Shown here one piece after another: positions 9,601-61,392 of a stretch of DNA of 64,000 nucleotides. A program made the position numbers and the translations under genes. Numbering within the stretch: position 1 is the first letter of the stretch; the number at the start of each line of letters is the position of its first letter. The stretch is from NCBI GenBank assembly GCA_034387635.1, contig JAOANU010000013.1:310001-374000 (forward strand), written 5' to 3'. The DNA is from Rhodosporidiobolus odoratus. Taxonomy: Eukaryota; Basidiomycota; Microbotryomycetes; Sporidiobolales; Sporidiobolaceae. The notes below the pieces were generated by a model. That model made no database searches. It worked only from the letters and a program-made list of their open reading frames with translations, and was not told the origin of the DNA.

Positions 9601-10855
9601 CCTTCTTTATCTTTACTGCTCGAAGCCCTTCCCGCTTTCCTTTCCCTCCAATCCTCTCTCGCGGAGAAGTGGGAACAGACTGAGCGAAAAAACGGGAAGG
9701 GGGATCTAGTCAGAGCTCAGGCTTGTAGAGAGCTGGGAGTGACGGGGGTTTTGGGAATGGCGAGGGTTTGGGGAGTGGGAGAGGTAGAGGTGATGGCTAG
9801 GGAGGTACGTTCTCGTCTTTCCCCTCTCGGTTTCGGCTGTCTTCCGTCCTGTCACTCGGCTTGTGGCGGAATGGTGTATCTGAGGGGAGTTACTGATTCG
9901 ATATAAATGTGTGCACGGTGCAGGCTCTCGACAGGATGCGACCGCTGGTCACTCCTTCTCCTCCTCCTACCTCTTTCTCCTCTTCGTCGTCAGAACCAGT
10001 ACCGCTCCAAGAACCTCACTCAGGGTTTGCGGCTCGACCTACTTTCCCCTCTTCGTCGCCACCGCTTGATCCGGACAGGGTTATAGAGTCATTCTTAGCG
10101 AACGCGTGGGTGAGGAGAGCTGGGAAGGAGATAGGGATTGAGGGGGAGGCGTTGAGGGAGGTTCTGACGGGCAGTGGTGCGCATTGCTTTTCTATGCGCT
10201 GCACGCTGTTCACTGATCTGACCGTATGCCATCATGACCTACAGCGCTCTCCGCTAACGAGCCTTCCGTGTCACTTTCCGGCCTCTCACTCTCCTCATCC
10301 CTGAACCGACCAACCCGAGCATCGCATTCCTACGTCAACCTCTCCCTGTCCGCCTCCGCCTCCCCTTCCTCACCTCCGCCTCCTTTCCCCAACCTCAATC
10401 CCCGAACTCGCCGCATCTCCTCCGCCTCCCACTCCTCTCCACTTGGTAGCGACCGATTCTCTGGGCTCAACTCCCTAAACGGGAACGGTTCCCCAGCCTC
10501 CAGATCTGTATCTCGACACGTTTCCCTTTCCCCTTCCTACGTCTCTCACCGTACCACTCAGACAACTTCTTCCTCCCTCCGGGCCCCCTCCCTGGCAGAC
10601 CTGCAAGCCTCCCTGTGTACTTTTTCCTCGCACCCTGGCACGAGGACAGGAACAGCGAGTGGTGGGAGGAGTATAGCTTCGAGCGTTGAGACTGGTGCGA
10701 CAGGGGCGACGAGAAGGAGACGAAGGACAGAGAAGTTGGGGAGGGAGATCGTGTTGGAAAATATCGGGAAGGCCAAGGGGTCTGGAGGGGGGAGGAGGAG
10801 GAGTGGGACGGGTGCGAGTGCGACTAGTAGCACTGAGGGTACTGGGGCAGAGTGA
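6644..10855 (+). CDS. EFR3: EFR3-like plasma-membrane scaffold protein
   Basis: Efr3 is a helical-repeat (ARM/HEAT-like) protein that anchors the phosphatidylinositol 4-kinase Stt4 complex at the plasma membrane. Exons 6644-7096, 7227-7372, 7443-7607, 7698-9804, 9924-10176, 10245-10855; phases close to 1244 aa. Support: N-terminal HLSLIKDCYPP followed by LIFYSLSRPQKLPKL and VGVTLEILKEVVDQWG match the order of conserved segments in fungal Efr3 (SRPxKLxKV then VTLxILKxLI); helical blocks FRCLKLVGEMAGSRNPA and QVDELLPILLRNLVDEAG follow. The middle (about 470-760) is low-complexity Ser/Pro-rich and the C-terminal tail is basic and Ser-rich. ATG 6644 is the first in-frame ATG. Identification rests on the first ~150 residues and overall architecture, so it is less certain than neighbouring calls. 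Confidence 0.68.
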
Positions 10856-11311: not shown

Positions 11312-14005
11312 ATGCTATCCACCCGTCTATCCACCAGCTTGACTCGCTCGTTCGCCCGCACCTCGTCTCTTCGCGCTTTTAGCTCCGTCTCCACTCGTAC
11401 AAACTTGGCTCGTCCCTCCTCCTTCTCGCCCCTCAACTACACCCCAAACGCATTCAGTAATCACATGGGAGCTACCAGGCAGTCTCACGGTATGGGCGAG
11501 TCCACCGTACGTCTTCCTCGTTGCGTTCTCGCTCGCGGCGACTTGTCGTGTCCCCCCCCCCCCACTTTCTCTGGGCAGAGTCGCTGAACACACTCAACTG
11601 ATGTATGTGATGGTCGTAGGTCCGCCCAGAGTCCGACAAGGTCATGCAAGACATCGCCGACTATGTCCACAACTACGAGGTCCGTCCGACCCCTCTCTTT
11701 CCCTTCCTTCCGTTCCTCCAGCCTCCCTTCTGACTCTCCTCCTCACCCGCTTTTCTTCGCCGCAGATCAAGTCAGACCTGGCCTACTCCACTGCCCGCCT
11801 CTGTCTCCTCGACACGCTCGGCTGCGGCCTTGAAGGTCTTCGCGTCAGTGAAGAGTGCCGCAAGTTGATGGAACCGGTTGTGGAGGGGACTACGGTACCC
11901 AACGGGACCAAGGTTCCGGGAACGGCGTTCCAGGTCGATCCCATGTGAGTGCTTCTCCTGCTTTGCACTGTTTGCTTGCTGGCCGACATTGACATCTTTG
12001 CTCTCTCGCTCGGCCTCGGCGAACTAACCTCTTCGCAATAGCCGGGGCGCCTTTGCGATCGGCACGCAGATCAGGTGGCTGGATTTCAACGAGTACGTCT
12101 CTATGGCTGCACTTTGTTCAGTTTCGCAGGAACTGGCCTGACCTTTTTTTTTTCCCAGCTGTACTTTCACTTTTTCCTCCTGACCAGACCTTCCGCCTGA
12201 ATGTCCCTGCTGATATCCACCCGGTTTAGGCTTCCTCGCCGCGGAATGGGGTCACCCATCGGACAACCTCGGCGCCATCCTCGCCGTGGCCGACTACCTC
12301 TCACGCACCGGTCAACCGCTCACGGTCAAGGACATCCTCACCGCCATGATCAAAGCCCACGAAATCCAAGGCTGCATGGCCCTCGAGAACTCGTTCAACA
12401 AAGTCGGACTTGACCACGTCATTCTCGTCAAACTCGCCTCTGCCGCCGTAGTCTCTCAACTTCTAGGCCTTACTCGAGACCAAACCGTCGATATCATCTC
12501 GCAAGTCTTCGTCGACGGACAGAGTCTGCGCACGTTCCGTCATGCGCCCAACACCGGATCGAGGAAGAGTTGGAGTGCGGGAGATGCGTGCATGAGAGCG
12601 GTTCATTTGGCGTTGCAGGTTAAGAGGGGACAGATGGGTATTCCAACGGTATTGACTGCCAAGACTTGGGGCTTCTATGATGTGCTGTTCAAGGGCAAGG
12701 AATTCCAGTTCCAGAGGGAGTATGGGTCGTAGTAAGTCTTTTTTCTGCTCTTCGTTCATTGGCATTCTGCATCCGTTCACCGCTTCTTCCTTCCGGTACG
12801 TCGCATATTGACATCTCCACTGACGGCCTACAGCATTATGGAGAACGTCCTCTTCAAGATCTCCTTCCCCGCCGAATTCCGTACGCCCTCTTCCCCTTCT
12901 TCATGCGCGATACCCCAGACCTCGTGTGTTGACTTCTCCATTCGCAGACGCACAAACTGCCGCCGAAGCGGCGCTCATCCTACACTCTAAGCTCAAGGAG
13001 CTTGGCAAGTCGAGCGACGACATCAAGGAGGTCAAGATCAGGACGCAGGAAGCTGCGGTACGTTCTTTCTTGCTTCCAGGCCTTTCTATTCTCTCTTGCG
13101 TCTCTCGCTATGCGACAAGACTAATTTGAAACGATCGGGTCGAATGCGCAGATTCGCATTATCGACAAGTCTGGACCGCTGCACAACTTCGCGGACAGGG
13201 ATCACACCCTGCAGTACATGGTCGCTGTACCTCGTGCGTCCCTTCGCTTCCTTTCCGCTCGTGCCTGCAGTATCAATCCTGGGTGCCGGCGCTTCCTACT
13301 TGCCTCCACCTTCCCTCTTTCTTCCTTTCTTCCTCTCTGCTATCGCCAAAATCGGCGTGCTTGCTCGTGTCGTCGCGCTGCTCGGCAATCGCGCTGTCTG
13401 ACCGCCCTCTGCTTTGATGCAGTCATCTTTGGTCGTCTCACCACCGAAGACTACGGCGATGCGGTCGCGGCTGACCCCAGGATCGACGCTCTAAGGGAGA
13501 AGGTACAGTCTCCGCTCTACCCCGGATCAACTATCGAGTATCGACTGAGTTTCTTGCTCCACGATCTTCGCAGATGTACTGCCGCGAAGACCCTACCTTC
13601 ACCGCCGACTACCACGACCCCTCGAAGCGGTTCATTTCCAACGGCTTGACGATCACCCTTGATGATGGGACCGTCCTTGATGAGGTGGCTTTGGACTACC
13701 CTGTTGGACACAAGAGGAGGCGCGAAGAGGGCGTGCCATTGTTGATGGACAAGTTCAAGAGGCATGTTGGAGGTTGGTTGGGTGAGGAGCAGGTCGAAAA
13801 GTACGTTCACCTTCTTTTTCCCATTCTGATGCAGTGCAGCCTGGTCTCACTGGCAGGGCACGCTACTGCTGTCACGCCAAGCAGGGCTACTGGGGGACTC
13901 AGGCTGATCCTGCCCATACACAGGATCTTGTCCCTCACCTCGGACCAAGCCGCGCTCGAAAAGATGCCAGTCAAGGACTTTACCGACTTGTTTGTCAAGG
14001 CGTAG
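11312..14005 (+). CDS. PDH1: 2-methylcitrate dehydratase, mitochondrial (PrpD family)
   Basis: Dehydrates 2-methylcitrate in the methylcitrate cycle that detoxifies and uses propionyl-CoA. Twelve exons: 11312-11506, 11620-11679, 11766-11944, 12042-12092, 12159-12160, 12230-12731, 12834-12880, 12948-13057, 13152-13233, 13423-13502, 13574-13800, 13924-14005; phases close to 538 aa. The N-terminus is a typical mitochondrial presequence ([20 protein letters not shown]). PrpD landmarks: [81 protein letters not shown] and [14 protein letters not shown]. The reading frame between WLDFN and FLAAEWGH is restored only by a 2-nt exon (CT, 12159-12160). Family assignment is very secure. Confidence 0.95.
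12159..12160 (+). other. Apparent 2-nt microexon in PDH1
   Basis: The upstream intron 12093-12158 starts GTACGT, has CTGAC 18 nt before its end and ends TTTTTCCCAG. The downstream intron 12161-12229 starts GTACTT, contains GCTGAT near its end and finishes GTTTAG. Using the 2-nt exon gives ...[15 protein letters not shown], matching the PrpD family (NDTWLAAEWGH). Splicing straight from 12092 to 12230 would put the strongly conserved downstream segment out of frame. Confidence 0.75.
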
Positions 14006-14702
14006 AGAAGTGTAGCACTTTCAGCTCGAATTCAGCATCTTTACGCCTGGACCCCCACTTTGTCTTTCCTCGTCTTATCCGCTGAGATTGAAAAAAGGGG
14101 TTGTACAGACTTGAAGCCAAGGAGTGTGGGGCCAGGTAAATCTGCAAGTATTGGGGAGGAGATGCTGTCAGCTTACGTGCAGGATGACGTCAAGCTGGGG
14201 ACACCACACATCGGCGGTCAAATTGTTTCTTTCCTTCTCTTCAACTTGAGAAGGTCAAAATCAGCCGTCCCTGGGACTTAAGAGATTAATGACAGGCTGG
14301 CAGTGTGTTGACGGAGCTCAACTAAGCATGCAGCTCCCGCAGGAACCAAGTGTGCATGCCCCTATGCCCGGCAGGTCTGGAAGCGGATAATTTCTTCAGA
14401 TTCCTGCCTTCTTCTTCCCAGCTCCGGTGTCATACCACCAGCTCTCTCTTCCAGTGGTCCTCGAGTAATTCCTGTTATTGAGCTGCCAAAGCTGGTATCG
14501 TGATGCGCCTGCTTAGGACCGTCCCTTTGTATTCAGATGGGTTGCAGGCTTCGGTTGCCGTCTTTTTTTTGGTACGATGTCTTTCAGTGTTTACGTCCTG
14601 CTGATATGGGACCAGCCCTGCATTGATAGCTCCCCACCGCGCAATTGGGAGCCGCTTAGTCGTTGCTGTACATGGCCTGGTCTACATATGTACCTCACGC
14701 TT
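14006..14702. other. Intergenic, convergent 3' ends
   Basis: Lies between PDH1 (plus) and the first small membrane-protein gene (minus). No gene, RNA or repeat recognised. Confidence 0.5.
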
Positions 14703-15628
14703 CTAGGTTGTCCCCCTCGCCTCGCGCCCCCAAGAATGCGACCGCACAATGATATATGTGATCTGCCAAAGGTGACTCAGTGCCAGATAAGTGAGAGAAA
14801 TGATCCAGGAAGACTCACCCACACCATGAACAGTATGAACGCAGCAATACCCGTACTTATGTATGCCCAGACAAAGCCCAGCTCTTGCGTTTTGGCAGCT
14901 GCTACCACGAACTATTGACCCCAAGCCAGATTTTCGAGGACAGTACGAGTCAGATAGTGTTAGTCTGCCTAAAAAAGGGTTGGAACCGGGACTCACAGCT
15001 AATGTAGCTAGTCCCAGCAAGATTATGCTGACAACTACGAGACCCACCCTGAGTGGGTAAGGCCTTCTCTCATCCGCAGGATGGAAGGGCAGTGCAAAGG
15101 GGTCATCAATTTGGCCTGTGTGCGTGCTTTGGCGTGAGGGTCTTTGTGAGGAACGGCGACTACGAGGCGGATCAGGCTAAAAGCCGTTCTCGGGGTCGCT
15201 ACCACTTGCGTAGATGCGATGTGGCTGGTCATCACTGACTTCATCGTCATACGTGGCCGAAGGCTCGGGAGTGCGGGTACTTTGACGGTTGTGAGACGCT
15301 GAGCGAGACAGCGGACGCCTCGCATGCTCTTCAAAGTCGCCGTTCGAACGTCTACTAAATCCAGCGATCTGAGCCAGCCATCAAATGCATCAAATCGATC
15401 AGCAGGGCGCTCCGTTCAAAGTGGAAGAGGAAAGCGTACCTGCTGCCCACTGCACTCTTGCAGCTCGTATCGTTCATTACGGCCGTGCTCCACTGATCTG
15501 TACAGGTGCACACGCCGCGAGCCCCTTCGCGTGTCGCTTAAGCCATTGCCTTCGTCCGAGGACGCAGAAGAAGGGGTGCCAAAGTGGCCTGCAGAACTTT
15601 GCGAGAGTCGAATTTTGCGAGAAGAGCG
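14703..15628 (-). pseudogene. Two-helix membrane-protein family, copy 1 (doubtful or decaying)
   Basis: Same plan as the neighbouring copies: an N-terminal basic/Ser-rich exon (about 15440-15628, with SSASSDEGNGL and YRSVEHGRNERYELQE), then exons 14997-15176, 14819-14911 and 14703-14762. The last three encode GLVVVSIILLGLATLA (helix 1), a short loop with AAAKTQELGF, AYISTGIAAFILFMVW (helix 2) and a tail ending WGREARGTT. Introns are phase 0 as in the other copies. Two problems: no in-frame ATG precedes exon 1, and the frame upstream of 15176 meets TAG (15177-15179) unless that TAG is the acceptor of a ~263-nt first intron, far longer than in its relatives. It is either a gene with an unrecognised short first exon or a recently damaged copy. 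Confidence 0.5.
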
Positions 15629-16193
15629 TGCGTGCACGTTGGGTATGGAGTGTCTGGTGACTTGAAGGGTGGTAACGTGAAGCAAGAGCAGGAGAGAGTC
15701 CAGTGCAAGTCCGCCGGGTCAGAGATGAGGAGAGCAAGCCGACGAGTCCGCGGAAACTAGAGAGATCGAATGGCAGTGCTGGAGGTCACATGCCAAGGAT
15801 CGTCGGCGCACTGCAGTACATGTGTGCCCTTCACATATGTTCCTTCTTACTGAGCCATGAACGCCTCTGCTGGGTACTGGACCCACCTCAATGCGATTCT
15901 TGCTCACTTGAGAAGGTCATTCTGGCAATGTTGTTGAAGCTGCTGAATGAGCATGCTCAGAGGGATCGGGCTTGAGCTGGACATGAGTACACTTTCACAA
16001 AGCTGAGTTCTCGTAGCTGGAACAAGGAAAGACTGGAAGAGAGCGACCCCTGACAGCAGAGATGCAGAAACTGCTTCTTTACCTGAACAAAGCTGCACTG
16101 TGGTCTATGTCCTTACAACCGCTATACAGGACCTTGCATTCAGCGTTGACCCCTCACCACTACTCTCTACAGCCGTGATCACCTCCCGCCTTA
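15629..16193. other. Spacer between family copies 1 and 2
   Basis: A minus-strand ATG at about 15986 opens a short frame (begins MSSSSPIPLSMLIQQL) ending at a possible GTGAGC donor, but no partner exon was found. No other feature seen. Confidence 0.35.
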
Positions 16194-17040
16194 TCAGGCG
16201 GTTTTCCCGTAAAATGCCATGGCCACCTGCAACGTTGGCAAACCATTCGATCAGCTTGGGTCTGGCAAGGACACATAGGAGAACACTCACACTGAGCAAT
16301 AGAAAGAATCCACAAACACCCGTACCAACGTACCACAGATAGTTACTTGTATCAAAGCCTTTCACGAGTAACTGCAGTTGTCAGAAAAAGGTATGTTAGT
16401 GCACAAGCCCATCACAGGTAAGGAAGTACTAGATAGCTCACTCCAATACCGATCAGCAGGAAGATGGGCCCCAGGATCCAACCTGCGCATGAAATGCGCC
16501 CCTTGTTCCTGCGAGCTCTGCGCTGTTCGGATGAGAGGCTAGTTGCCTGATTGCTGGGCCTGCCAGCCCACCCGTGCTCTGCATGAAACGGCTGATTCTC
16601 GGTATCAGATGGCGAGAACGGGCCCTCTGTGCCGTAGCTGTTCTCGTTGAGGTGCGTAACGGAGTGACGAGACGAAAGATGTAAAGGAGCAGGCTGCCGA
16701 GGTTGCCTGTGGCGGGGTGGCTCGGGATGCTCTGTGCCGGACTACAAGGTCGGCAGTATCAGCTGACCCATAGTGTCGGTGAAGTAGTCTCTGAACGCAC
16801 CGAATCGGAGGCAAAGTTGTCCATCTCAAATTCTTCTGCTGCACGATGTCCCGACCTGGCCGCCGGGTGTTGCGGACCGGCTCCCAGACTTCTGTAAGCT
16901 GACTTGCCTGTGCCGGCTGACCTCGCACGCCTCGCTGAACCGTGCACCAACCTGCGGCCAACTTCCGAATCCGGGTCGGAAGAATTGCTGGTTGCGGAGG
17001 GAGCGTAGCGAGACCTGCGGTTTGCGCGGCGAGAAGGCAT
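16194..17040 (-). CDS. Two-helix membrane-protein family, copy 2 (217 aa, function unknown)
   Basis: Not a family I recognise. Exons on the minus strand: 16801-17040 (80 aa), 16442-16741 (100 aa), 16291-16371 (27 aa), 16194-16226 (10 aa plus stop); all introns phase 0 with clean GT/AG and branch sequences. Exon 1 starts MPSRRANRRSRYAPS, is rich in Ser/Arg/Asp and ends with the family motif as SAYRSLGAG...EFEMDNF. Exon 2 is hydrophilic and ends with helix 1 (GWILGPIFLLIGIG). Exon 3 has a short polar loop (KGFDTSNYLWY) then helix 2 (VGTGVCGFFLLLS). Exon 4 is a short tail ending FYGKTA. Predicted topology: both termini on the same side, long disordered N-terminus cytosolic (positive-inside inference). 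Confidence 0.72.
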
Positions 17041-17542
17041 GCGGGACGAAGCTTAAGTGAGTTGGTGGTGAGAAGTGAAGCAGACTTTCAGGTGCACAGC
17101 GTGTCCCTGGAGGATCAGGAGGTTGCGAAGGGACGGAAGAGGAGCGCAACAGCCCGGCTGTGCGGGTCAGCGGACCACGCTGAATCGCGCCCCAATTCTC
17201 GCCAAGAGCAAGAGAGGAGCGCACAACCCGTCCGCTGAGCTTGTGCGAGTCCGACTGCGCAAGTGAAAGCAGAACTCGACCCAAATCGGACTTGGAAAGA
17301 TCAAATAGGGTGACGCCCAAGTACAGCCTGGTATCTCTGCAGGCATCAAGTATACCATCTCAATGCAAGAGCACACAGGAGCACAAGCAAGCTTCCTTTC
17401 CTCTAGAATGAGTGGCTTTTGAATTGCGCAGACATCAAAAACCAGAGTCTACAGCCACAATCTTCCCTTTTGTAGTGCTCGTAAATGGCAACATCAGCAA
17501 GACTAGCTACGCCTTAAGGAGCAGACGAAATCATCAGCCGTG

Positions 17543-18379
17543 TCACCGGCCGTAGCGCTTGAATACGCAGATCCGGATAGAGAGGCCGATCTGTTCATAT
17601 GTGAGGAGAATTGGTTCAATCAGTCAGGGATTCGAGGAAAGATGTGAAGTATACTTACCGCTGCAAGTACACCAAGCCCAGGTACCGCCGAGGCGTACAG
17701 AAGCCACATCTTATCTTCGTTGTGAGCCCAAGGCACAAAAAACTGTGATGAGAAACCCAGAGTTGTCCGGGTCAGCGCTGAAGTAGCTTGCAAGGTCGAG
17801 AGACGCACAGCGACGAATATAATGGCGCTGATTACGCCAATTGTGCCGGGCAAGCCTTGGTCCTCCTTGAAGGAAAAGGCTTTATGAGAGGCGGCTTGAC
17901 GTGTGCCAGCGTTCGCTGGTCGGGGTCTGCTAGGCGCCGCGTCATGGCGACGACGAGCTGGTGGTTCCTCCTCCGTAGCGGAGGACATGCCGGCCTCGTC
18001 GTCGCGATGGTGACGCGTTCTGGGAGGATTGATAGGCTGAATGTGCCCGCCTTGGCGATCTCCTGGACGCGGCGGAGCGGGCTTAGCAAGACACAGCGGT
18101 ACGAAATAGGTCAGCTGCAATTAGACATGTTGAGGTATCAGATGCCATACTCACCGTGATTCCCAAGTCGTCGAGAGGGATTTCCTCTCCACCGCCCTGC
18201 TCTCTTCCCCCCCTGTGGCCTAATGCTCTGTAGCTCTTCACAGTACCACGTCGAGACCCGCTCTGACGACGGGGCGAAGGTTCAAGGCCGTCGATTGAAT
18301 CGGCGTCCGATGAAGAGCGGGAGTCTTCGCTGCCGAAATTGGAGTACCGGTGTTTGCGGTCGGCTCGTCGCGAAGGCAT
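17543..18379 (-). CDS. Two-helix membrane-protein family, copy 3 (220 aa, function unknown)
   Basis: Exons on the minus strand: 18155-18379 (75 aa), 17809-18114 (102 aa), 17659-17742 (28 aa), 17543-17590 (15 aa plus stop), all phase 0. Start MPSRRADRKHRYSNFGSEDS is nearly the same as copy 2; the motif appears as KSYRALGHR...EEIPLDDLG. Exon 2 is basic and Pro/Arg-rich and ends GLPGTIGVISAIIFVA (helix 1); exon 3 reads FFVPWAHNEDKMWLLYASAV and continues into helix 2; the tail ends IRICVFKRYGR. Sequence between the conserved start and the helices cannot be aligned with copy 2, although exon sizes match closely (75/102/28/15 against 80/100/27/10). About 500 bp separate it from copy 2 in tandem. 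Confidence 0.75.
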
Positions 18380-19418
18380 GGCGGTGATCACGAAGCAAAA
18401 GGAAAGCGAGAGAGCGAAGCGCTCGTTGAATTGCCGAGGTGGATGGTCCGCGGCGGTTCTTTCCCGTCATCCTCTTTGGGAGAAAGCTGTGCAAGGTCAG
18501 ATGACGGTAGTCCGAGTGGGGGTCGAAGGATGCAGAAGCTGCAGATTGCTTGCCGACTGGAGTGGAGGTACTGGAGGCTCGACGCAAGCTACGAGTGCGT
18601 GCTGAGGCCTCGGTTGCGGCGCACAGTGCTGCAACTCGTTGAGAAGTCGAGAAATGGGGGAGAAGAGCGCCGCGACCATGCGCAGTTCAGCGGTAGGGGC
18701 CCATACCGTGTGCCCGAAAGTGCCCGAAGGGGACTAGCAGTATGCTTGAGCTATACCCTGAAACGCGGTAGATAGGCAGGATCGAGTGAAGCGGAGGGCG
18801 CAAGGCAGGACAGAAATAGTCAGCTGCGAAGTGGGAGGAAAGGTCGACATTAAGTCGAAAGGCAAGCCGGCATGAGCTGTCAGATCCATGCCTATGCCTG
18901 GCCCTGCTCCCCCTGCAAACTGCCCCGTGGGCTCTGAGGCAGTCTGCGTTCGAACGTCAGGTCCCATTTCGTCCATTTTCCCCCCTACTGCTGACTTCCC
19001 TGCGCTGGCTGTTTCGCCCGACGGGGTCAGTGCGGTACTAGTGGATGTTGTGGTTGGATGGCTGGCCTGAAGCTTGAGGGTGGTGGAACGGGCCAAAGGT
19101 GCTGTTGATGGATGAGACAAGCGTCCGAGTCTGTGAGGGAGAAGCGGTCGCGACTTAGGCGAGCAGGTGCGCCAGCCTCTCTTACTAGCGTCGCATTCAG
19201 AAGTGTAGCTAGCCGACTCGCCGCAGCGGTCAGCGGGTGTAGCAGGCGAACGAAAAGGAAGAATCAGGTGAGGTTCTGCGAATGCCAACTGGTGGAGGGC
19301 TTGATGAAAGTGCGGTATGGAGGTAGGGATAGGAATGTACTTGGTGTATCGTAAGACACATAGTCGACGAAAGGAACTACAGACAAGGCGAGGTAAGAGG
19401 GAAACAGGGAAGAAGCGT
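18380..19418. other. Spacer with one long minus-strand open frame
   Basis: A minus-strand frame stays open from 19453 to 18734, overlapping the last codons of BUD6, with Thr/Ser/Gly-rich content and no recognisable domain. It has no convincing start, so I do not call it a gene. It could be BUD6 3' UTR or a short species-specific exon. Confidence 0.35.
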
Positions 19419-22400
19419 CTAACCCGAAAACATGGCCTTGAGCGTCGCCTCACTCTTCTTCTGCCTCATCCGCTCAGCCTCCTCAATCCCTCCGCTCTTC
19501 TTCAACTTGCCCTCTCCGACAAACGCCCCCAATTCCTGCTTAAACTCGTCCGTCTGCCCCGCCGCCAACTGCTTCTCCCTCTCCCTCTCCGCCCTTTCGA
19601 TCGCTTCGAGTCGTTTACTCGGATCGGGTTGAAGCGCCCGAACTTCCATCAAAACCGTATTGAGACCTTCGTGCGAGTCGACCCCACCGCCTAGCTCCCT
19701 CAACCTCACGCCAGTCCCACCTCCCGTCCCCGATGCCGATCCAACCGAAGACGACGAAGTAGAAGGTTTGAGCTGTTTCGCCACGGCCTGGATATTGCTC
19801 AGAACCTTCTGAGTGTCCTCCAGATCCTCTTCCAACTCTCCCAACAACGTCTCCTGAGTCTCAACCGCCTTCTGTTCCCCTAAGATCCGACTCAACTCGA
19901 CACTCCACATCTGACTCCAACTGGGTTTGACTTCCTTCAACCACGTTTCGAGTTTGTTGCGCTGATCGACGGCTTTGCGGAGTAGAGAGGCAGTTTCGCT
20001 CAGTTGTTGAGGACGAGGTTTGACCCCCCTGACGGTATCGGCTCGGAGTTGTTCGATCGTATCCTGCAACTCATCCACTCGCACCACCAAATCGGTCGAT
20101 TCCCCATCCAATTTAACAGTCCCGGCCTCAACAAAGGCTCGATCCGTAGAGAGTTTACTTTGAGCTAAGCCGTGAAGGTGCGAGGTTTGGACTCGGAGCG
20201 AGGCGAATTGCGATTTGGTTGAAGAGGTGAAATCGATGTAGACTTGGCGGAGGATTCCGATTTCTCGTCGAAGGTTTTGGACTTCGGAGTGTTGAGATTG
20301 GAGGGTGGTGACAATGGGACCGATCGACGTGGAGGTGGTAGGGGAAAAGGTTTCACCGCTGGTGGGAGGGGGAGGGGGAGGTACTGCCGAGGGCGCAGTG
20401 GCGGTAGCGGGCGAGAGATCCTTCTTCTCCGCTCCTTCGTCTGCCTTCTTTCCCTTGTCGCCGTCCTCGCTGCTTGTAAGCGGGAGGAGACTAGTCGTGC
20501 TCCCCGCCCTCCTCATCCTCAATACCATCTCCGCCGCGTTCTCAAACTGCTTCTGACTCGGGCTAGGGCGCATTCCAACGCTGCCACTTGTTGGACTAAG
20601 CCCACCTGCGTCGGGAGAGAGGAGGGAAGAGGTGTTGAGGTGAGAGGTGGAGAGACGGCGCATGGCTGTTACGGTTGCGCGGAGCTCTTTAATTTCTTGC
20701 GAGAGAGTTGAGAGACCCGAGTCGATGTGGTGCTTGACTTGTTCGACGGCTGAGGACGAGACAGTCAAGACACCGCGTCATGGAAAGGGCGAGAACAGAG
20801 GGGCGGCGTGCAGGAGTGAATAGAGGTGAAGGGTCGAGGAAAGACGAAAAAAGGGTCAGACGTCAGAACCAGCTCGTTCGGATTGCTTTGGCGTGGCATA
20901 ATGTGATCAAGTCGAAGGAGAAGGAAGAAAACAAGCGAAAAAAGAGAAAGCCCGAACTTACCGTCCACCTCCAAACTAACCACACTCCCCTCCCCAACCT
21001 CCTCCAACTCCTCCAACTCCCACCTAACCCCTGTCTTCTCATCACACAAATACAATTCCGGCCAACCCCCTTCCGTTACCCCTGGAGAATACCCAAACCT
21101 TTCACAGAACAATTGCCTCAATTGTTCGATACTGGTTGGAGGACTGGGGAGGTGGGCTCGACGGACTCGAGGACCGAGACGGAGGAAGATGGACAGGGGG
21201 GCGGCAGGGTCTCGCTGAGTCGGCGGGGAGGGAGAGGGAAGAATGGGGGGAGTGACAGAAGCCGATCGCGAGATGGGTAGAGGAGGAAGAGCGGGAGAAG
21301 AACCGCGAGGAGCGAGATACCCCGGGTGAGCAGGTCCGACTTTCGAACCGAAAGGAGGAGCAAGGGTGATAGAAAGGGAGGGACTGGACAGCGTCGGAGC
21401 GGAACCAGAACGTGGCATGCCGTCTTGTCCCGGGGTTGCTGAAAGTGCGGGAGGTGGAGTGACCGACGGTCGTTTTCTCCCTCCCCCTGTCCTGATCCCT
21501 GCATCCCGCCGCACCGGACTCTCATCATCCCCTGCCCCTCCATCTTCCTTGTCCTCCTCTCCCTCCTCCTCCTCTTCTTCAGCAATCGGACTCCTCTGCC
21601 CCCTCAAGTTCTGACTACTACTCCAACTTCTCGGTATCCCCGGCACAGGCGGCGCTCCCACCCCTCCTCCTGCCCCAAGAGACCTAGACGGCCTATGTTC
21701 TCTCGAACTCTGACTCCTCCTCACCCCTCCTTCCGTCCCCGTCCCCGATCCCAACCCGGACCCATTCACAGCGAAATCTCGCTCTCGGATTCGAGGTTTA
21801 TCCGCCCTGGGCGATCCATCCCCGCCAGATGATGGACTAGCTCCCCCTCCCCCACCTGCAGTGGTAGAACCAGGTTGAGGAGATGTCATTTTCTGGATCG
21901 CATAGGCCGAGTAACGCTTCGAGGCGCGACGGGAGAGGTGGTCTGACGTTTTGAGGGCTTCGAGGGAGGCGGATTGCGCTTGAGCTTGAGACTGAGATGG
22001 AGGCTGCGGTCGAGATAGAGACGGGGGAAGGGGCGCGGAAGGCTCGTCGTCGTTGATGGAAGCAGAGGAGGGTGGGCGGACGATCGTGGAGGGAGGGGGA
22101 AGGCGCGGGACCTGACTCCTGTACTGTTGTTGCTGTTGAGGCTGATTCGGGGCCTGTGGGGGGTTGGAGGAAGATGAAGCGGAGTTGGCAGTCGACGCGC
22201 TGGGAAACCCAGTAGGAAAAGTATCCGTCGTAGGCGTTCGAGGAACGGCGGGAACGGCTTCGCCCCTACTCCGAGACGGCGGCGGCGGCGAACGAGTCCT
22301 GGGCGTCCTAGTCCCACCGGTAGAGGCGACAGATTGAGGCGCCGAAACGTTACTGTCCATCGACGTGGTCGAGTTGGATCTGGGCATTGCGGGTGCCTCC

Positions 22401-23661
22401 CTTGAAATGACAGAAGGCATCAAGCCGATATCCTCGAGCGTTCCCCTTGTCGAGGAGCGAGACGAATCCCGCTCGTGTAGACTGCCTCGTTCTCGTAGAG
22501 ATCCGCCTCGCTGAGGTCCCATTCCTCCTCCCCCTCCAGAGGATCGCGACGGAAAAGCGGATTCGCTCCCGCCTCTTCGTGCCATAGACCCATTGAGGCT
22601 AGCAGACGAGGTGGTCGAGACGCTGCCATCGCTGTGCCTCCCTCGGTTGTACCCGTAAGCGCCGTTCTCCTCGTACGTGGGTGGGGGAGGCGCCGCCGCA
22701 GCTGCAGTGACGAATCGCCGCAGCTCGTCCCTACTCCTACCCGCGCTAGCCGGCGTAAGGGGTATCCCACTCTGACCCGGTGAAGCACCGATCCCAAGTC
22801 CAACATGAGCGGCTTGACCACCAGCGACAGCAGCCGCATTCGCAGCCCGTTCCCGTTCACGTCGAGCCGCTGATCCTTCGCGGTAGAGTCGCTGTTTCTC
22901 TCGCAAGCCGTGGAGGAGGCCGATGATGATTTGTCGGACTTGGGGGAGGTGGCGTTCGAGAGCTGCTTGAGAGGGAGTGTCGGAGAGGCAGGTTTCGAGA
23001 CAGATTCGGAGGTCGGATGGGACGGAGAGAAGCTCGCTACGCAGCAAGCAGGTCGTCAAGTCACGCATGGTGGAGGGTGAGTGTAGATGAGGGAGAGAGA
23101 GGACGCACTTCATTCCGATTTTTTCGCGAGCAAATGCTGCGCAAGCTACGTTGAAGTCGTTGCCGAGTTTGACATAGATGGCAGAGATGGCGTCTTCTGA
23201 TACTTCGCCTCGTGACCATTTTGCGAGACCTGTTGATGGCGGTTTCAAGCACAGAGTGGGATATGCCGGGCGAACGAGGCGGTGCGAGGAACGCAGGCGA
23301 GTTGCAGCGAGCGAGCAGAGAGGAGGTATAGCGGTAGTACGAGTGTGCAGACTGTAAGTATGCGATCATATAGCAGGTGGGAGACGCTGCGCACCTTCGA
23401 GAAGCTGTTTGGTCGCGACAAGGAGCCTGGTGATAGTGCTCTCCAAATTGCTATTGGACGCCGGCCCCGCCTGTTTGTTGCAGTCTCATCAGTTCCATCT
23501 GCGAATCAAAGTCCTTGACTGGGCAACGACGAGGCAACATTTCTTGTACAGACTGAGTGGGGAAGAGGAGCTGAATCGCATACCCTCGATCCGGTAGTCT
23601 TTCCGCTATTGGCGGAGGTGGCAGGGGAAGCTGCTCGACTGTTTGAGCTGTCGCCTGACAT
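19419..23661 (-). CDS. BUD6: Bud6/Aip3 actin- and formin-binding polarity protein
   Basis: Polarisome component that binds actin and stimulates formins at growth sites. Exons on the minus strand: 23584-23661, 23395-23470, 23109-23229, 20962-23036, 19419-20749; phases close to 1226 aa. N-terminal domain: ITRLLVATKQLLEGLAKWSR, YVKLGNDFN, VPSDLRICLE and YLP-like HLPQVRQIIIGLLHGL. A ~500-residue Ser/Pro-rich linker follows. Near residues 700-780 is the conserved FLRLGPRVRRAHL...IEQLRQLFCERFGYSPG segment. The C-terminal exon is the largely helical core/flank region with coiled-coil segments (LQSQHSEVQNLRREIGILRQ, SQMWSVELSRILGEQKAVET) that binds formin and actin in Bud6. Start MSGDSSNSRAASP was chosen because its splice to exon 2 keeps the frame. 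The intron before 23229 is longer than usual (165 nt). Confidence 0.9.
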
Positions 23662-24023
23662 TCCGCTTGTCGTCTACGTTGAAGGAGGCAAAGGTAATGA
23701 TGAGCGAGTGAGGACGTTGGAGAACGGCAAGTCGAGCTGGGAACGGTGCGCTGACGAGGGTTGAGGGTGGCAGAAGGTATAGAGACGTTTTTCAGCGCCG
23801 CCTAGCTTGCACTGTGGGTAGTTTGAAACAGCAGCGGGAGCAAACTATGCGAGAGGTTCATCGTGCGCTTTCGAATCCGAGTACGAATCTCACACTACAG
23901 CTGAAGCTTTTTCATCACGCTCAACTCGGCGAGACAGCTCTCAATAGCCGCACCCGACCCTCCACGACGACGTCCAGCTCGATCGACGTCTTTCCCACCT
24001 CCTCCTCTTTCTCTCATTCCAGC
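23662..24023. promoter_or_regulatory. Divergent promoter region of BUD6 and the cis-prenyltransferase
   Basis: About 360 bp between the chosen start codons. In-frame sequence for the plus gene extends back to about 23814 (ATG at 23847), so the true promoter may be shorter. Confidence 0.4.
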
Positions 24024-25419
24024 ATGCTCACCTTCCTCCGAGCCTACTTACCCTTTCCCTCATCAATACCTTCACCACCACCGATACACGACGATCCACC
24101 CTCCGACCCCCCGCTTCCCCTCTCAGCTTCTTTAGTTCCCTACCTCCCCTCTTTCACCCACTCCCTCCTCCGCTCTCTCCTCATCTCCAGCCTCTCCCTT
24201 TTCCCCCTCCCACAACACATAGCCTTCATTATGGACGGTAACCGTCGAAGCGCACGAGAAAGGCATCTTCCCGTCCGAGTCGGGCATGAAGAAGGCTTCG
24301 AGGCACTCAAGAGGGTCTTGAGTTTCTTGCTGAGGCTGCAAGTGCCTCATGTCACGGTGTATGCGTTCAGCATCGAGAACTTCAACAGGAGCGCGGACGA
24401 GGTGGACGCCCTGATGGGAATGGCTAGGGGGAGGTTGGTCGAGATATGCAGACATGGGTGCGTCGTCTTTTCTCCTTATTGGTCATCTGCACGCTCTGGC
24501 TAACTGCTTCCTGTCGGTTCTGCGCTTATTCTGACGCCTGTAACTTATCCCCCACCGTACTACATCGTCGGCCACGACCGCAGCGCCCTCCTTCACCAGC
24601 ACGGCGTCCGGATCCGCGTACTAGGTCGTCGAGACCTCCTTCCTCCTGATGTCCAAGCAAGTTGCCTCGAAGCCGAGAAGATGACAGAAGGGAACACTCG
24701 GTGCGCTCCCCCATCAGTAACTTTTCCTTGCCTTCCTCCCATTCCGTGCTTTCGCTCCTTCCTCCCCCTTGCTTATGATCATCCCTCTTTGCTAAAGAGA
24801 CGCGAAATACTAACGTCTTGCTTGCTGTTTACGATAGGGGTGTCCTCAACCTTTGCTGCCCCTATGCCTCTCAAGAAGAAATCGCCTCTTCAATCAAGCA
24901 TACAGTCGAGCGCTGCGAAGCCGGTGAACTGGATCCTGCGTGCGTCTCCCTTCTCCTCTAGCCCTTGCCTTCTGTTTCTGATCTCGGCCTTCGTGAACAA
25001 CAATCAACACACAGGGATATCACGGAACATGCCCTAGACGCAGCGATGTATACTTCTCAGTCTCCCCCGCTCGATATCCTCATCCGAACCAGCGGGGTCA
25101 GGCGGTTGAGCGATTTTCTCCTATGGCAGGTGCGTCTACCACTTCTCCATCTTTTCCTCTTCAGCTCTCTCCTCCTCTCCCCTTTAGCGTGGAAGAGCCA
25201 AGAGCTGAGTCGAGTTGAGTTGAGCAGGCAAACGAAAATACAACTCTCCATTTCGCCACACCCAATTGGCCAGACATCGGAGTAGCCGATATCCTCCCAC
25301 CTCTCTTGGCCTGGCAAGCGGAGAAACTCGCAGAGATAGTGGGAGGGATGGTAGGAAGGTTGTTGGGGATGTTTGGGCTCGGCAAGCTCGGCGCCGGGTT
25401 GGAGGGGTCGGGAGGTTAG
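24024..25419 (+). CDS. RER2: cis-Prenyltransferase (dehydrodolichyl diphosphate synthase)
   Basis: ER-associated enzyme extending farnesyl diphosphate with isopentenyl diphosphate to make the dolichol backbone for N-glycosylation. Exons 24024-24457, 24584-24700, 24838-24939, 25015-25129, 25228-25419; phases close to 319 aa. Motifs in order: [15 protein letters not shown] (catalytic Asp region), [64 protein letters not shown] and [20 protein letters not shown]. The N-terminus before residue 70 includes a hydrophobic stretch ([15 protein letters not shown]) typical of ER association. ATG 24024 ([11 protein letters not shown]) fits the family better than the upstream in-frame ATG 23847. RER2 and SRT1 paralogues cannot be separated from sequence alone. 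Confidence 0.92.
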
Positions 25420-26214
25420 CTGCCCCCTATGTGGACTGCATGACGCGCAACGATTGATCAGGCGCTGGACAATGGGGTTTTCTTTCGAAGTGCTCGACCG
25501 CGTACGACTCGACGCCTCTTTCCAGTCCCGCTGACACGCTTCTTTTCGCTTGCTGTGACACTCCGCGGCTTCTAGCTCGTGCACGGCCCGGCATATCTCA
25601 ACACCGCCTAGCAGCTGGCATCGAGGTCAGCCAGGAGCCCAAGGGACGGCAGACAGCGATCGTGTCGGCGCTTGTTGAGTGTGGGTTGGTGGTGGAAGGG
25701 AGTGTTCACGGAGAGACTTGCTTCTGCGTGCATCCTGTCCTGTATAGCGGATGCGTTGATACCCCTGATGCAGTGTATAGACATTGCTTTTGTGGGGCGG
25801 GAATGGCAAGCTCAGGGCTAAAAGGAGGAGAAAAGGACTGATGGCTTGAAAAGGTCGAAGGTTAGTCATTCCAAAGGGAACCCCTACACCAAAAGGATAC
25901 CCACATCGAGCTCAGTTGAATGGCAGACGTAACACAAAGCTCCTTTGCATGAGCACCCTCGCTAGGCAATGACTCAAGCTGGTCAGGAAAGGATGTGGCG
26001 AGCCTTCTCTTCTGCTGTAGCATGCTTTGTACTCGGAGCAAGCTCGTTGCTCGAGCTCCTCTATGTCTTTCAGAGGACCACGGGACGTGCTGGGAGAATC
26101 GGAGAGGACAGGATCCGATGGATAGAGACAGCCCGATATAAAAGGAAAAGTGGGTCCCCTGATAGTTACGATCAACCCCCTCTTCAAGCGCCGCATGAGA
26201 AGCAAGCGACCTGC
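25420..26214. other. Intergenic, convergent 3' ends
   Basis: Lies between the cis-prenyltransferase and family copy 4. Open frames seen here have no family resemblance or splice partners. Confidence 0.45.
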
Positions 26215-26958
26215 TTATCCGTTGAAGGCCTTCTTCTGGTACCAATGTCCCAGTATTAACTGCAAGAGCGCGAGTCATGATCATCCAGACTATCAGTCAA
26301 AATCTTCACTCACCCGCCACTGGAGGATTCGAGCGGCTGCACTCACCAGCACGAAGCCCAGGACCGTCACGCCTGAACCCCACCCGATCCTCGCAATGTT
26401 GACAGGTGCATCCGACGGGACAAAGGCGAGCGTGATAGCCTAGGAACGCAAGCCTGGTCAACTCTGGCAGATTTCTTCTGGCGCTGCAGGTGCAGCAGAT
26501 GAGACTTACAATGACACCGCCGCCCACAAGACAAGTACCTGAGCACATGATCGCCTCGTAACGTCCTCGGGTGTATTTGATTCGCGAGACTGATCCTCGA
26601 CTTGGAAGTTCTACTCGATTGGCTGTGTTTGCCAGCCGGCGCCGTGCAGAAGATCCGGGGTTCTATGAAAAAGACCAACGTGAACAAGCTGTGTCTGCCT
26701 CGAGCGGTTACAGGATGCGAAAAAAGATCTCCATCTCCATACCATGTCATCAAGCGGAATGCCCCTCTCTGGATCGTGTCCCAGCGCCCTCATACTGTAC
26801 TCCCTACCCCTTCCCTTCTTGGATCGGGTACTATTGGTCGAAGAGCGGCGAGAGGAGTCGGGTCCGAGCCTGTCGGAGGAGTCTTCATCGCTCGATTCAA
26901 CTTCGCTGCTGGAGTATGCCGGGTCAGAGTACTGGCGGTCAGGACGACTTGACGGCAT
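26215..26958 (-). CDS. Two-helix membrane-protein family, copy 4 (168 aa, function unknown)
   Basis: Exons on the minus strand: 26743-26958 (72 aa), 26510-26662 (51 aa), 26347-26439 (31 aa), 26215-26259 (14 aa plus stop), all phase 0. Start MPSSRPDRQYSDPAYSSSE; motif EYSMRALGHDPERGIPLDDM at the end of exon 1. Exon 2 is short and basic and ends in helix 1 (CSGTCLVGGGVI); exon 3 continues AITLAFVPSDAPVN (loop) then helix 2 (IGWGSGVTVLGFVL); the tail is LILGHWYQKKAFNG. It lies 8 kb from copy 3 with BUD6 and the cis-prenyltransferase between, on the same strand. Its short exon 2 shows that the hydrophilic middle is free to change length. Confidence 0.75.
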
Positions 26959-27940
26959 GCTGCGCTGGGTGGATCAGCTGTCTGCGACGGATTGGAAGGA
27001 GCGAGGGAAGAGGAGGGAAGGAGTGAAAAAAGCCTCGCCCTGCCGGATCCGCGGAGTTTTCTTGCGCTGTCAGGAGTCGGCGGCGATGATCCATGGCTCG
27101 TCCATGGCGGAGGTGCAGAGCTGTGACGAGGCTTGTGCACTCAGGCTATGTGAGACAAAGCTAGTCAGTGATGTGCACAGGGCTATGCAAGCAAGTCGGC
27201 TGTCCTAGCAATGCGGAAGGAACTCTCAAGACCTTCTCAACTCAAACTTGCGACCTTTGCACAAGCTAGCTACGTCCTTCCGTTGGTGTAGACGCAATGC
27301 AGAGCTATTCATACGCAGATCGCACAACCGGAGTGGAGGCGTTGCGGGGACATAGACGAGCAAGTGACCCCTGGTTGTGCTTACAGTGTTTACCCTTTAC
27401 ACCACAGAAGTTGGCAGACTGTGTCGTGAGCACGGCTTGGATTGATCACTGCAGTGCTGCATTTGGCGTTTTAAGCACTGAGCTGCTCGAGGTCACGCCG
27501 TTCTCTGACATCTCTCCCTATGTGAAAGGCGATGTTGCCGTTGACTTTGCTCGCTTGGACGCTGAGAGGATGAGAGGCCAATAGTGTAGTCTAGCATGCA
27601 GTCTAAACTCAGCGATAGCGTGAGAAAGAGAGCAAGCCAGGTTGCTGCCGGTTTCGCCCAACTCCTCTGACCTCATCACTACACTTCACTTCCTGTCACT
27701 TCTCCTCCTTGCCTATCCAGATTCCCCGCGCTATAACCCTAAGGTCAACACAACTGCACTGTGTAGGCGTGGTAAGGGAGCGATCCCTTACACCATGGGT
27801 GTCAAACACTCACTGTAGTAGTGGCATGAGCAGACCTTTAGCCTGGTCATTCAGGCAGGTGGCAAGGAGACAATTGAACTTTTGACACGTGGAAGTCGCA
27901 GTGAGTTTATCTCTCCAGCCTGTCATCCCAAGTACTGTAT
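26959..27940. other. Spacer between family copies 4 and 5
   Basis: A 95-codon plus-strand frame (27297-27584, ATG start) shows no recognisable domain or codon signature and may be chance. Nothing else recognised. Confidence 0.35.
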
Positions 27941-27979
27941 CAGCTCACAACCATCATGAGGAGAAACTGAGCATGACAG

Positions 27980-28730
27980 CGAGTCAGATGCAGGCCTTGT
28001 CAGACTGCATCTTGATCAGAAATAATCCTTGCACGTGCAGGCACCATACCGAAACCGCCGCCCACAATAAGTGCCCAGATGTCGGGGGTCGGGTTTGTGT
28101 AACCATAAGCTGAAATCTACATGTACCCAGGAATCAATGGTGTATGTTACTACAAGGCAGAAAGAGGCTCACACTGACGGCTACTGGAAAAACCAGAATG
28201 CAAATGCAGAGAATCCGCAATTTACCGGCCGGTTAAAAAGCTGCGCAGGATGCTGTGAGTCGTGCTGTTGCTGTTCCTTCTCGCCACTTGAGGGTCTTCC
28301 AGTATGGCGCGTTGAATGTTGCGGGTCGCTCGAGAGATCCCGCATCCCCCTAGGAAGCCAGGAAACAAATTTTTGTCGAGTTATCAAGAGGGGTCACAAA
28401 ATAAGAGTGGACCAGACACTTTATACAAGAAGGGGCTTCTGACTGGCAGTGAGAAGGTGGTGTGAGTCAGAGGATCGTTACACTCCTGCCACTCTCCGAG
28501 CTCCGTGTCTGGCTCTTGCCGGCTCCATGCCTTAGAGAGGCGCCCTGGGTTTTTGCATCACGTACTCGCTCCTGCTGCCGCGCCCTCTAAAGCGTTCTTT
28601 AGCTCAGGAGCGGCGAGAGGGGTTCCTTTCAGGAGCAAGTCCATTGATCAAATCCTCGTCACTGGCTGAGGGCGGATCCAAGGTCGCTTGATTTGACCAA
28701 CACTGAGGCGCTACTGTAACAAAGAGACAA
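27980..28730 (-). pseudogene. Two-helix membrane-protein family, copy 5 (decayed)
   Basis: Remnants in family order on the minus strand. Exon 1 (about 28500-28700) retains SASDEDLINGLAPE, close to SSSDADSIDGLEPS of copy 3, and RGRGSRSEYVMQ, close to GRGREYSMRA of copy 4, but is broken by several stop codons and has no start. Exon 2 (acceptor near 28351) runs in phase 0 to helix 1 (RILCICILVFPVAVS) with one TAA at 28233-28235. Exon 3 begins ISAYGYTNPTPDIWAL and continues through a Gly-rich helix 2. A possible last exon ends near 27980. The combination of retained exon phases and several stops indicates a dead copy. Boundaries are approximate. Confidence 0.55.
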
Positions 28731-28747
28731 GAGAACAGCGTATATTG

Positions 28748-28835
28748 CTGGTCCGTTCTCTGTGAGCGTGAGCGTGAGGTGAAGCTACAAAAGAGAACAC
28801 ACCTGGTTCGCTCTCCGTGAGCCTGAGCGTGAGGA
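28748..28835. repeat. Imperfect direct repeat of about 31 bp
   Basis: Two copies of a TGGTYCGYTCTCYGTGAGCS-type unit followed by TGAGCGTGAGG lie near 28750-28780 and 28802-28832, separated by about 20 bp and differing at a few positions. Function unknown. Confidence 0.6.
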
Positions 28836-29220
28836 GAAGAACCAAGGTTACGTCGTCAGTTCCCGGCTGACTGCCCAAGCTCAATATTGCTGCTGCTGTG
28901 GCAGTCTTAGGCTAACAACGGCTTCCGATAGGCTGAAATGTAGAGCAGTCGGCACTGTCATGACATTGACAGGCTATGTATACAACGTGCTTAGTCAGCA
29001 TTTTCCCGGGGGGCAAACAAGGGAGCAAGCGTCAAATGTCGCAGACGGGAATAAGAAGCAGAACCAGGTGGAAGAGGGTTGGCTATTGGCTGGCTTTACA
29101 CCCTTCAGTCGCACAGCAAACGGTCGCAACTACATTGAGGCGTAGGAAGATGGCCTGCCATTCCACCCCCTCCTCTCATCTCTTCCCCCTCCTAGACCTT
29201 CTCCACACCCTGATCCGTGC
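28836..29220. other. Intergenic upstream of the decayed copy and 3' of the PBDC1 gene
   Basis: No gene, RNA or repeat recognised. Confidence 0.4.
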
Positions 29221-30451
29221 CTAATCCCACCGCTTCGGATCCCTCTGATTCTCCTCAAAGATAAAGTCGTTGAGCCCGGCCTTGTTTCTTGCAATCTCGA
29301 TAGCGTAGAACTGGGTGCGGTAGCCTGTTTTTCTCGATCATCATCATCAGCATCATTGAGCGCGCGTGCGTGCGTGCATGCGTGAGCGCAGGGTGCAGGG
29401 TGCGGGTCGTAGACGGGAAGATGATAGGCAGGGGACGATGAGGTCATGGTAGAGCGGGGGGGGGGGGGGGGGGGGGTCGGAGGGAAGGGCGGTGCAGGGT
29501 GGAAGAAGCCGAGTGGGGAACAGTCAGTATGAAATCAGAGCTGAGTGGGGGCACGTCCAGGAGGCGGAAAGCCTACCAAACATCGAGTTTTGCTCCGTGT
29601 AATCGTCCTGAACGTTCTTTCGAAGCAACGTCCCAAAGTTGTACTCATCTGTTGATCACCAGATTCCAATCGTCAGTCAGTATTTTCCATGAGCGGCGCA
29701 GGAGGGGAGGGAGCAGAAGAACAAGAAACTGACCAATCTTCTTCTCAAACGGCATCATAAACTCCCTCCACCTCTTTTTCCCTTCTGGAGATTTCATCTC
29801 GTCCTCATCAAGCAACTTGAGTTTCTCTCCACCGTTGGCGAGGTATTCGGGAAAGGCGGTTGAGAAGGAAGAGTATAGTTCAGAGTCCCATCTGGGGGTG
29901 GGCGGAGGAGGAGGTTCGTGGAGCCAATGTGTGTGCGAGTGTGGGACGGAAAGAGAGGGGAATGGAAGGTTTGGGCCGAGGTTTGAGGGCGTTGCGAGAG
30001 CGTAAGGGAAGAGTGAGGGACAGCAGGAGACGATGGGCGCAAAAGAAAGAAATGGAGGAAGGGTCAGATCAGCTTCTTGATCAGGTGATCAGGGAGAGGG
30101 CTGCAAGGGACGCGAAAAGGAAAGAAGAAAACGCAAGAACAGTAGAGTACGAACTTGGTCAACCTCGGCAAAGTACTAGCCTTCAAACTCCTAATCAACT
30201 TGAAATGAGTCTCGGCTTCCTCCATACATTTCACCGCAAACTGCATTTCGATGCGTAGAAACGCGGACGAAAAGACGGCAAAGAAGGGGCGTTAGTTCGG
30301 CGTACATGGCTGGAGCTACGAGGGAGGGCTTCGTATCCTCGTCGTTTCGCGCGCTTTCAGCAGAGAAAGTAGACGGCAGCGCTGCTGGCGCTCCTTGCCC
30401 GTCGACGGCGGCGAACGAGCGACCGGAGATGATGTCGTCGATTTCTGACAT
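29221..30451 (-). CDS. PBDC1/YPL225W-family protein (eEF1A chaperone homologue)
   Basis: Exons on the minus strand: 30320-30451, 30155-30240, 29734-29891, 29577-29648, 29221-29324; phases close to 183 aa. Conserved family segments in order: FAVKCMEEAETHFKLI, LTKWDSELYSSF, LLDEDEMKSPEGKKRWREFM, YNFGTLLRKNVQDDYTEQNS, RTQFYAIEIARNKAGLNDFI. The budding-yeast homologue Ypl225w has been described as a co-translational chaperone for elongation factor eEF1A; the same role here is inferred from homology. Start MSEIDDIISGRSF at 30451 is the first ATG; the exact end of exon 1 is the least certain boundary. Intron 2 uses a GTTCGT donor. The last intron (29325-29576) is long and carries a 21-nt G/C homopolymer. 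Confidence 0.88.
29456..29476. repeat. Poly-G tract of 21 (poly-C on the sense strand of the PBDC1 gene)
   Basis: Uninterrupted G21 on the plus strand inside the last intron of the PBDC1 homologue. Long mononucleotide G runs are hard to sequence, so the exact length may be an assembly artefact. Confidence 0.85.
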
Positions 30452-58671: not shown

Positions 58672-58726
58672 CACCGACTGCTCACAAGTCTAGATTACGC
58701 CCTCTTTCCCCTTCGTTCTGCCCAGC

Positions 58727-61331: not shown

Positions 61332-61392
61332 CAGCAGGGGGAGCAGCAGGGGGAACAGCAGGGGGAGCAGCAGGGGGAGCAGCAGGGGGAGC
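61332..61392 (+). repeat. Tandem 12-bp repeat encoding Gln-Gln-Gly-Glu in the polyprotein
   Basis: About five units of CAGCAGGGGGAG in the linker between integrase and reverse transcriptase, with minor variants at the edges. Confidence 0.85.

What the first reader, a model, noticed from the sequence alone, without database searches (positions are those of the whole stretch)
14703..28730. Tandem family of unrecognised two-helix membrane proteins with a shared N-terminal motif
Seen directly: five minus-strand loci (14703-15628, 16194-17040, 17543-18379, 26215-26958, ~27980-28730) share one plan. Exon 1 begins MPS[RS]R-x-[DN]-R in the three intact copies, is Ser/Asp/Arg-rich and ends in a motif like Y-x-[MA]-R-[AS]-L-G...[IE]-x-[LM]-D-[DN]. 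Exon 2 is hydrophilic and ends in a hydrophobic helix. Exon 3 is a short polar loop plus a second helix. Exon 4 is a 6-19 residue tail. All introns are phase 0. I know of no named family with this signature. Inference: a lineage-specific cortical, membrane or cell-surface family under rapid turnover.
Basis: partly seen in the sequence, partly recalled or inferred. Interest (0 to 1): 0.85.

Follow-up and report, generated by a model that had tools for sequence, protein, structure and literature searches.

The report
Orphan two-helix membrane protein family, yeast
A red-yeast chromosome carries a small cluster of related, unnamed genes for membrane proteins with a long floppy head and two membrane helices, so far recognised in only one other species; they look like real genes, but what they do is unknown.

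Summary
Three intact four-exon, all-phase-0 genes (B 16194-17040, C 17543-18379, D 26215-26958, minus strand) and two decayed copies (A, E) lie where stated. Another intact copy, F, lies 1.8 kb beyond the window (C13:375834-376628, plus strand); a diverged candidate, G, lies 34 kb before it. Plan: disordered Ser/Asp/Arg-rich head with short motifs in fixed order, TM1, short loop, TM2, basic tail, introns at equivalent places. Exon-1 similarity beats shuffles for C, D, F and the E remnant; B is marginal; A does not, and hairpins of B/C versus D/F do not. Coding status is supported by a Rhodosporidiobolus odoratus protein (195 of 209 residues identical to C, last 60 unchanged) and D/F dN/dS of about 0.36. 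No Pfam family over cut-off; the three word-based protein searches returned only that one relative; copies found in the own genome are all on contig C13. So: an apparently lineage-restricted orphan family of Sporidiobolales. Best guess: hairpin-anchored cytosolic docking protein. Paralogs are synonymously near-saturated, so 'rapid turnover' is only partly supported. A wtf-type double start is not available in B and F; mating-locus linkage was not found.

The parts
17543..18379 (-). Copy C, intact: exons 18379-18155, 18081-17809, 17742-17659, 17590-17543; 209 aa (220 aa if the nearer acceptor is used); ortholog of R. odoratus JCM11641_007211 (P0001)
   Evidence: same length as P0001, 14 differences in 209, all in residues 1-149
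16194..17040 (-). Copy B, intact: exons 17040-16801, 16741-16442, 16371-16291, 16226-16194; 217 aa
   Evidence: 32% identical to C over 181 aligned residues
14703..15628 (-). Copy A, decayed: three phase-0 boundaries and hairpin coding pieces, but no start codon in the exon-1 frame and a stop in exon 2
   Evidence: exon 1 not above shuffles; a hairpin profile without A does not retrieve A at E up to 10 in 154 kb, so the relationship rests on position, architecture and intron places
26215..26958 (-). Copy D, intact: exons 26958-26743, 26662-26510, 26439-26347, 26259-26215; 168 aa
   Evidence: 41% identical to F over 164 aligned residues
27980..28730 (-). Copy E, decayed remnant (exon-1 motif blocks, two hydrophobic pieces, interrupted frames)
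   Evidence: exon-1 remnant reached by 0 of 2000 shuffles with the D+F profile, 4 of 2000 with B+C
19419..23365 (-). Neighbour: Bud6/AIP3 gene, upstream of copy C on the same strand
   Evidence: Pfam PF23153 and PF03915
23712..25034 (+). Neighbour between A-B-C and D-E: cis-prenyltransferase-like gene
   Evidence: Pfam PF01255

Best explanation
A real, apparently lineage-restricted family of small membrane proteins in Sporidiobolales red yeasts. Inferred mechanism: a C-terminal helical hairpin with a short loop anchors the protein with both ends in the cytosol. The long disordered head carries an ordered set of short motifs: an acidic Ser block S-D-x-[DE]-S, a basic R-R-x-S/T-like block, Y-x(0-3)-R-[AS]-L-G-[HA], and [GE]-[IF]-[PE]-[LM]-[DG]-[DN]. 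It would act as a kinase-tunable docking platform for a cytosolic partner at a membrane. Copies arose by local duplication on one chromosome, diverged to near or past synonymous saturation, and some decayed. Shown: gene structure, motif order, hydropathy, coding constraint, absence elsewhere as far as searched. Inferred: topology, docking, phosphorylation, which membrane.
For: Four intact copies share three introns at equivalent places, all phase 0. The first three motif blocks occur in the same order in all 4 intact copies and not elsewhere in 154 kb (regex written from them); exact forms of the third and fourth blocks are found genome-wide only in family members. Coding constraint: C vs R. 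odoratus 195 of 209 identical with 0 changes in the last 60 residues vs 14 in the first 149 (Fisher p 0.012). The strain JCM 11641 was annotated with BRAKER2/GeneMark-ES/Augustus and R. toruloides hints (PMC12093110, passages); that P0001 stems from that annotation is my inference from its tag. D-F dN 0.60, dS 1.66. Two hydrophobic peaks of KD 1.9-2.6 and none above 0.03 in the head; K+R before TM1 6/2/4/1, loop 1/1/1/0, tail 1/3/2/2 for B/C/D/F. AlphaFold2 on P0001 alone: head without structure, helices 152-168, 170-173 and 178-207.
Against: No expression data. The hairpins of B/C and D/F are not more alike than shuffles (233 to 538 of 2000 as high), so common descent of that half rests on architecture and intron places. 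B is only marginally like D+F in exon 1 (33 of 2000) and not retrieved by that profile at E up to 1 in 154 kb. The structure model is low confidence (mean pLDDT 56.4, pTM 0.23, one sequence). F has one K/R before TM1, so N-inside is weak there. No partner, kinase or location is known; the motif definitions are mine and the kinase reading is recalled knowledge, not a test.
Confidence: 0.45

Rival explanations
1. Selfish killer/antidote or self-recognition family working like fission-yeast wtf genes: a clustered, diverging multi-exon membrane family whose exon 1 is the most conserved part across paralogs.
For: Paralogs share exon 1 best, keep mainly the hydrophobic plan in the rest, are clustered and partly decayed. 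In wtf antidotes exon 1 is the most conserved part and the rest strikingly diverse (PMC7032740, passages). C and D have one Met in exon 2 before TM1 (residue 32 of 91 and 39 of 51), so an inner start is possible there.
Against: The wtf poison message lacks exon 1; here 0 of 4 intact copies have an in-frame ATG in intron 1, and B and F have no Met in exon 2 at all. Only two helices. Between C and its R. odoratus ortholog the hairpin, not the head, is the invariant part.
Confidence: 0.05
2. Distant, unrecognised branch of a widespread membrane family whose sequence has drifted past Pfam and word-based searches.
For: The database search needs shared 5-residue words, the profile search scored only a capped candidate list (7995), and the family is short and low in complexity, so remote relatives could be missed.
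Against: Pfam-A at E up to 10 gives nothing over cut-off for P0001, B, D or F (best 0.13, DUF3397, for B); no PDB sequence for P0001 at E up to 1.
Confidence: 0.3
3. Not genes: Ser/Arg-rich and hydrophobic reading-frame noise in intergenic DNA.
For: Small proteins, no transcripts on hand; A and E are broken.
Against: 93% identical annotated protein of the same length in another species, D-F dN/dS below 1, repeated intron places.
Confidence: 0.04

Closest known systems
Rhodosporidiobolus odoratus JCM11641_007211 (hypothetical protein, 209 aa)
   Same: Same length; 195 of 209 residues identical to copy C
   Different: Unnamed and uncharacterised itself; the searches with B+C+D, D alone and P0001 returned no counterpart of B or D; F was not used as a query there
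[quoted passage not shown]
   Same: Membrane-spanning, diverse multi-exon paralogs with exon 1 the best conserved (passages)
   Different: No start after exon 1 available in B and F, two helices only, hairpin conserved between species; sequence relation not tested
C-terminal hairpin-anchored membrane proteins in general (recalled class, no single family)
   Same: Long disordered head, two helices, short loop, basic tail
   Different: Nothing over Pfam cut-off

Membership tests
Orthologs of R. odoratus JCM11641_007211 | Full-length sequence identity and same length | tested here: met
   Copy C: 195 of 209 identical
One family A-F | Exon-1 similarity above composition shuffles between copies | tested here: inconclusive
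   Met for C, D, F and the E remnant; B marginal with D+F (33 of 2000 shuffles as high); A not (146 of 2000 with all four, 1331 with D+F)
One family A-F | Three phase-0 introns at equivalent places | tested here: met
   B, C, D, F; A by reading the frames; E not resolved
Any Pfam-A family | Score over curated cut-off | tested here: not met
   P0001, B, D, F: none
wtf-type killer/antidote | Second product starting after exon 1 | tested here: not met
   0 of 4 intact copies have an in-frame ATG in intron 1; B and F have no Met in exon 2; C and D have one before TM1, so not excluded for those two
wtf-type killer/antidote | Kills meiotic products lacking it | not testable with these tools
   needs crosses
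Secreted effector / cell-surface protein with signal peptide | N-terminal hydrophobic signal | tested here: not met
   Highest 17-residue KD mean in the head is 0.03 or lower in 4 of 4 intact copies
Mating-locus genes | Linkage to STE3 receptor or homeodomain genes | tested here: not met
   STE3 matches on C17, the one Homeobox_KN match on C20; family on C13. Linkage beyond contigs is not known, and a diverged homeodomain gene could be missed

The most novel reading that the evidence does not exclude
The cluster is a conflict locus: membrane proteins whose shared head is recognised by copies or alleles of the same family, acting in self/non-self recognition or gamete killing in red yeasts, by a route other than the wtf double transcript.
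Probability: 0.05. Interest if true: 0.8.

Novelty: new member of a known kind. Interest (0 to 1): 0.35.

Why it matters
It is a clear case of an orphan membrane-protein family with intact, decayed and outlying copies in one chromosomal neighbourhood, in a group of biotechnologically used yeasts. It has family-specific short motifs that would let members and partners be found. As a kind of thing (lineage-restricted local gene family) it is familiar.

Tried and rejected
Relatives: a profile of B+C+D (capped at 7995 candidates), D alone (159 candidates) and P0001 alone (2074 candidates) against 5.8 billion proteins gave only P0001. Other places in the own genome: weak hits on C4, C17, C1, C5 and C30, C1, 6 loci, reached at most 8.0 bits (E 0.16) with the exon-1 profile and 5.5 bits with the hairpin profile, judged chance. 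A C2 hit of the G query at E 0.6 was not followed. A start pattern for MP-S-[any]-R-x-[DN]-R: 12 places (backward control 2), 3 of them B, C, D; of the other 9, four (L042, L043, L048, L051) stop within 18 residues and were not profile-scored, and the five scored reached at most 5.5 bits. Mating-type linkage: not found. Wtf-type double start: not available in B and F. Neighbours with a Pfam match are ordinary genes or a copia element; 14 of the 30 frames submitted in those calls had no match at E 0.001. DNA-level similarity among the window copies: blastn of 14000-29500 against the window at E 1e-3 showed one short repeat only. A first run of the shuffle test gave no scores because of conflicting options (18 rows, discarded; the profile scans of that call ran) and was redone. 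In those scans B+C finds D (E 0.006) and F (0.04), D+F finds C (0.02) but not B, and the hairpin profile without A does not find A. No fold search was made because the model is low confidence. Literature: five searches (listings of 25 of 127, 0 of 0, 10 of 214, 6 of 6 and 3 of 3 papers) showed no account of this family in titles or abstract starts; two papers were opened, by passages only (PMC12093110; PMC7032740).
Full report
What was checked. The window is bases 310001-374000 of contig C13 of a 24.8-Mb, 45-contig genome. The one relative returned is from Rhodosporidiobolus odoratus, so the organism is most likely a Sporidiobolales red yeast close to that species. Seven table rows seen in PMC12093110 that I read as Rhodosporidiobolus (the held text garbles the genus) give assemblies of 22.7-25.7 Mb (passages). 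The species itself was not determined.

Gene models. The introns of these models are phase 0. R. odoratus JCM11641_007211 has 209 aa and differs from C at 14 places, all within residues 1-149; the last 60 residues, which hold both helices, are identical (Fisher p 0.012). By the methods passage of PMC12093110 that strain was annotated by BRAKER2 with GeneMark-ES and Augustus and R. toruloides proteins as hints; that this protein comes from that annotation is inferred from its tag.

Further copies. A search of the own genome with D found a 55% identical exon 1 at C13:375834, whose downstream exons follow the plan (F; exons 375834-376052, 376152-376349, 376414-376500, 376587-376628; the exon-2 acceptor could be 3 bases earlier). 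An exon-1 profile found a weak seventh candidate, G, at C13:275958 (E 0.012; 0.37 and 0.63 with the B+C and D+F profiles). It is reached by 0 of 2000 shuffles with the four-copy profile, 2 with B+C and 1 with D+F, but its later exons do not read cleanly. The copies found thus lie on C13 between about 276 and 377 kb. Single-sequence searches with P0001, B, D, F and G gave no convincing copy elsewhere (6 weak loci rejected, one not followed). Sensitivity is limited: B did not find C in that search, so diverged copies could be missed. DNA patterns for IPLDD[LM] (last codon HTG) and MRALGH match only C and D, and only D and F, in the whole genome.

Relatedness. Amino-acid identities over aligned residues: D-F 41%, B-C 32%, C-D 31%, C-F 25%, B-F 22%, B-D 20%. 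Against 2000 composition-preserving shuffles, exon 1 of C, D and F and of the E remnant stands out; B is marginal against D+F (33 reach it), and A does not (146 with the four-copy profile, 175 with B+C, 1331 with D+F). The hairpins of the B/C and D/F pairs do not stand out (233 to 538 reach them); A's hairpin is reached by 23 with B+C, 497 with D+F and 172 with all four. So the head is homologous on sequence, while the hairpin is homologous on position, architecture and intron places; for A that is the whole case. Synonymous change is saturated or uncountable except D-F (dN 0.60, dS 1.66), which shows constraint but no recent duplication. The window copies show no DNA-level match to each other by blastn at E 1e-3.

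Protein plan. In 4 of 4 intact copies the head has no hydrophobic stretch (17-residue KD mean at most 0.03) and two peaks of 1.9-2.6 lie at the end, separated by 10-15 residues, with basic residues before TM1 and in the tail, fewest before TM1 of F. AlphaFold2 on P0001 alone gives an unstructured head and helices 152-168, 170-173 and 178-207, with mean pLDDT 56.4 and pTM 0.23. Pfam-A (E up to 10) has nothing over cut-off for P0001, B, D or F, and PDB sequences nothing for P0001 at E up to 1.

Setting. C follows the Bud6/AIP3 gene; a cis-prenyltransferase gene separates the two clusters; other neighbours with a Pfam match include PrpD, an amidase, glycogen debranching enzyme, ornithine decarboxylase, a RhoGEF/CNH gene and a copia element. 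STE3 is on C17 and the one homeodomain match on C20, so the cluster is not the mating locus as assembled.

Mechanism. I favour a hairpin-anchored cytosolic docking protein: what is kept among paralogs is an ordered set of short motifs in the head, and in the rest the ability to span the membrane twice. Between orthologs, however, the hairpin is the invariant part, which suggests that each copy's hairpin has its own packing or partner. These steps are inference. The wtf comparison was tested at its defining point, a product starting after exon 1: not available in B and F, possible in C and D from one exon-2 Met each (the wtf description comes from passages of PMC7032740).

Verdict. A real, unnamed, apparently lineage-restricted family; ordinary as a kind; function open.

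Noticed in passing
window 58694-63269 (+): Copia-type LTR retrotransposon frames (gag, integrase, reverse transcriptase) in two overlapping reading frames.
   Followed up: partly
window 28748-28784 and 28803-28839: 37-base direct repeat (86% identical) just upstream of decayed copy E, made of TCACGCTCA-like units.
   Followed up: no
window 29456-29476 (C run on the minus strand): Homopolymer of 21 C, followed by CACG- and ATG-type simple repeats, in the stretch before copy E.
   Followed up: no
G000:C13:275958-276750 (+), L024: Candidate seventh, diverged copy G: exon 1 ends in GIPMDDLE before a GT donor; a hydrophobic stretch follows, later exons unclear.
   Followed up: partly
window 7657-9903 (+) and 32889-35252 (+): Long open frames of 749 and 788 aa without a Pfam match at E 0.001.
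   Followed up: no
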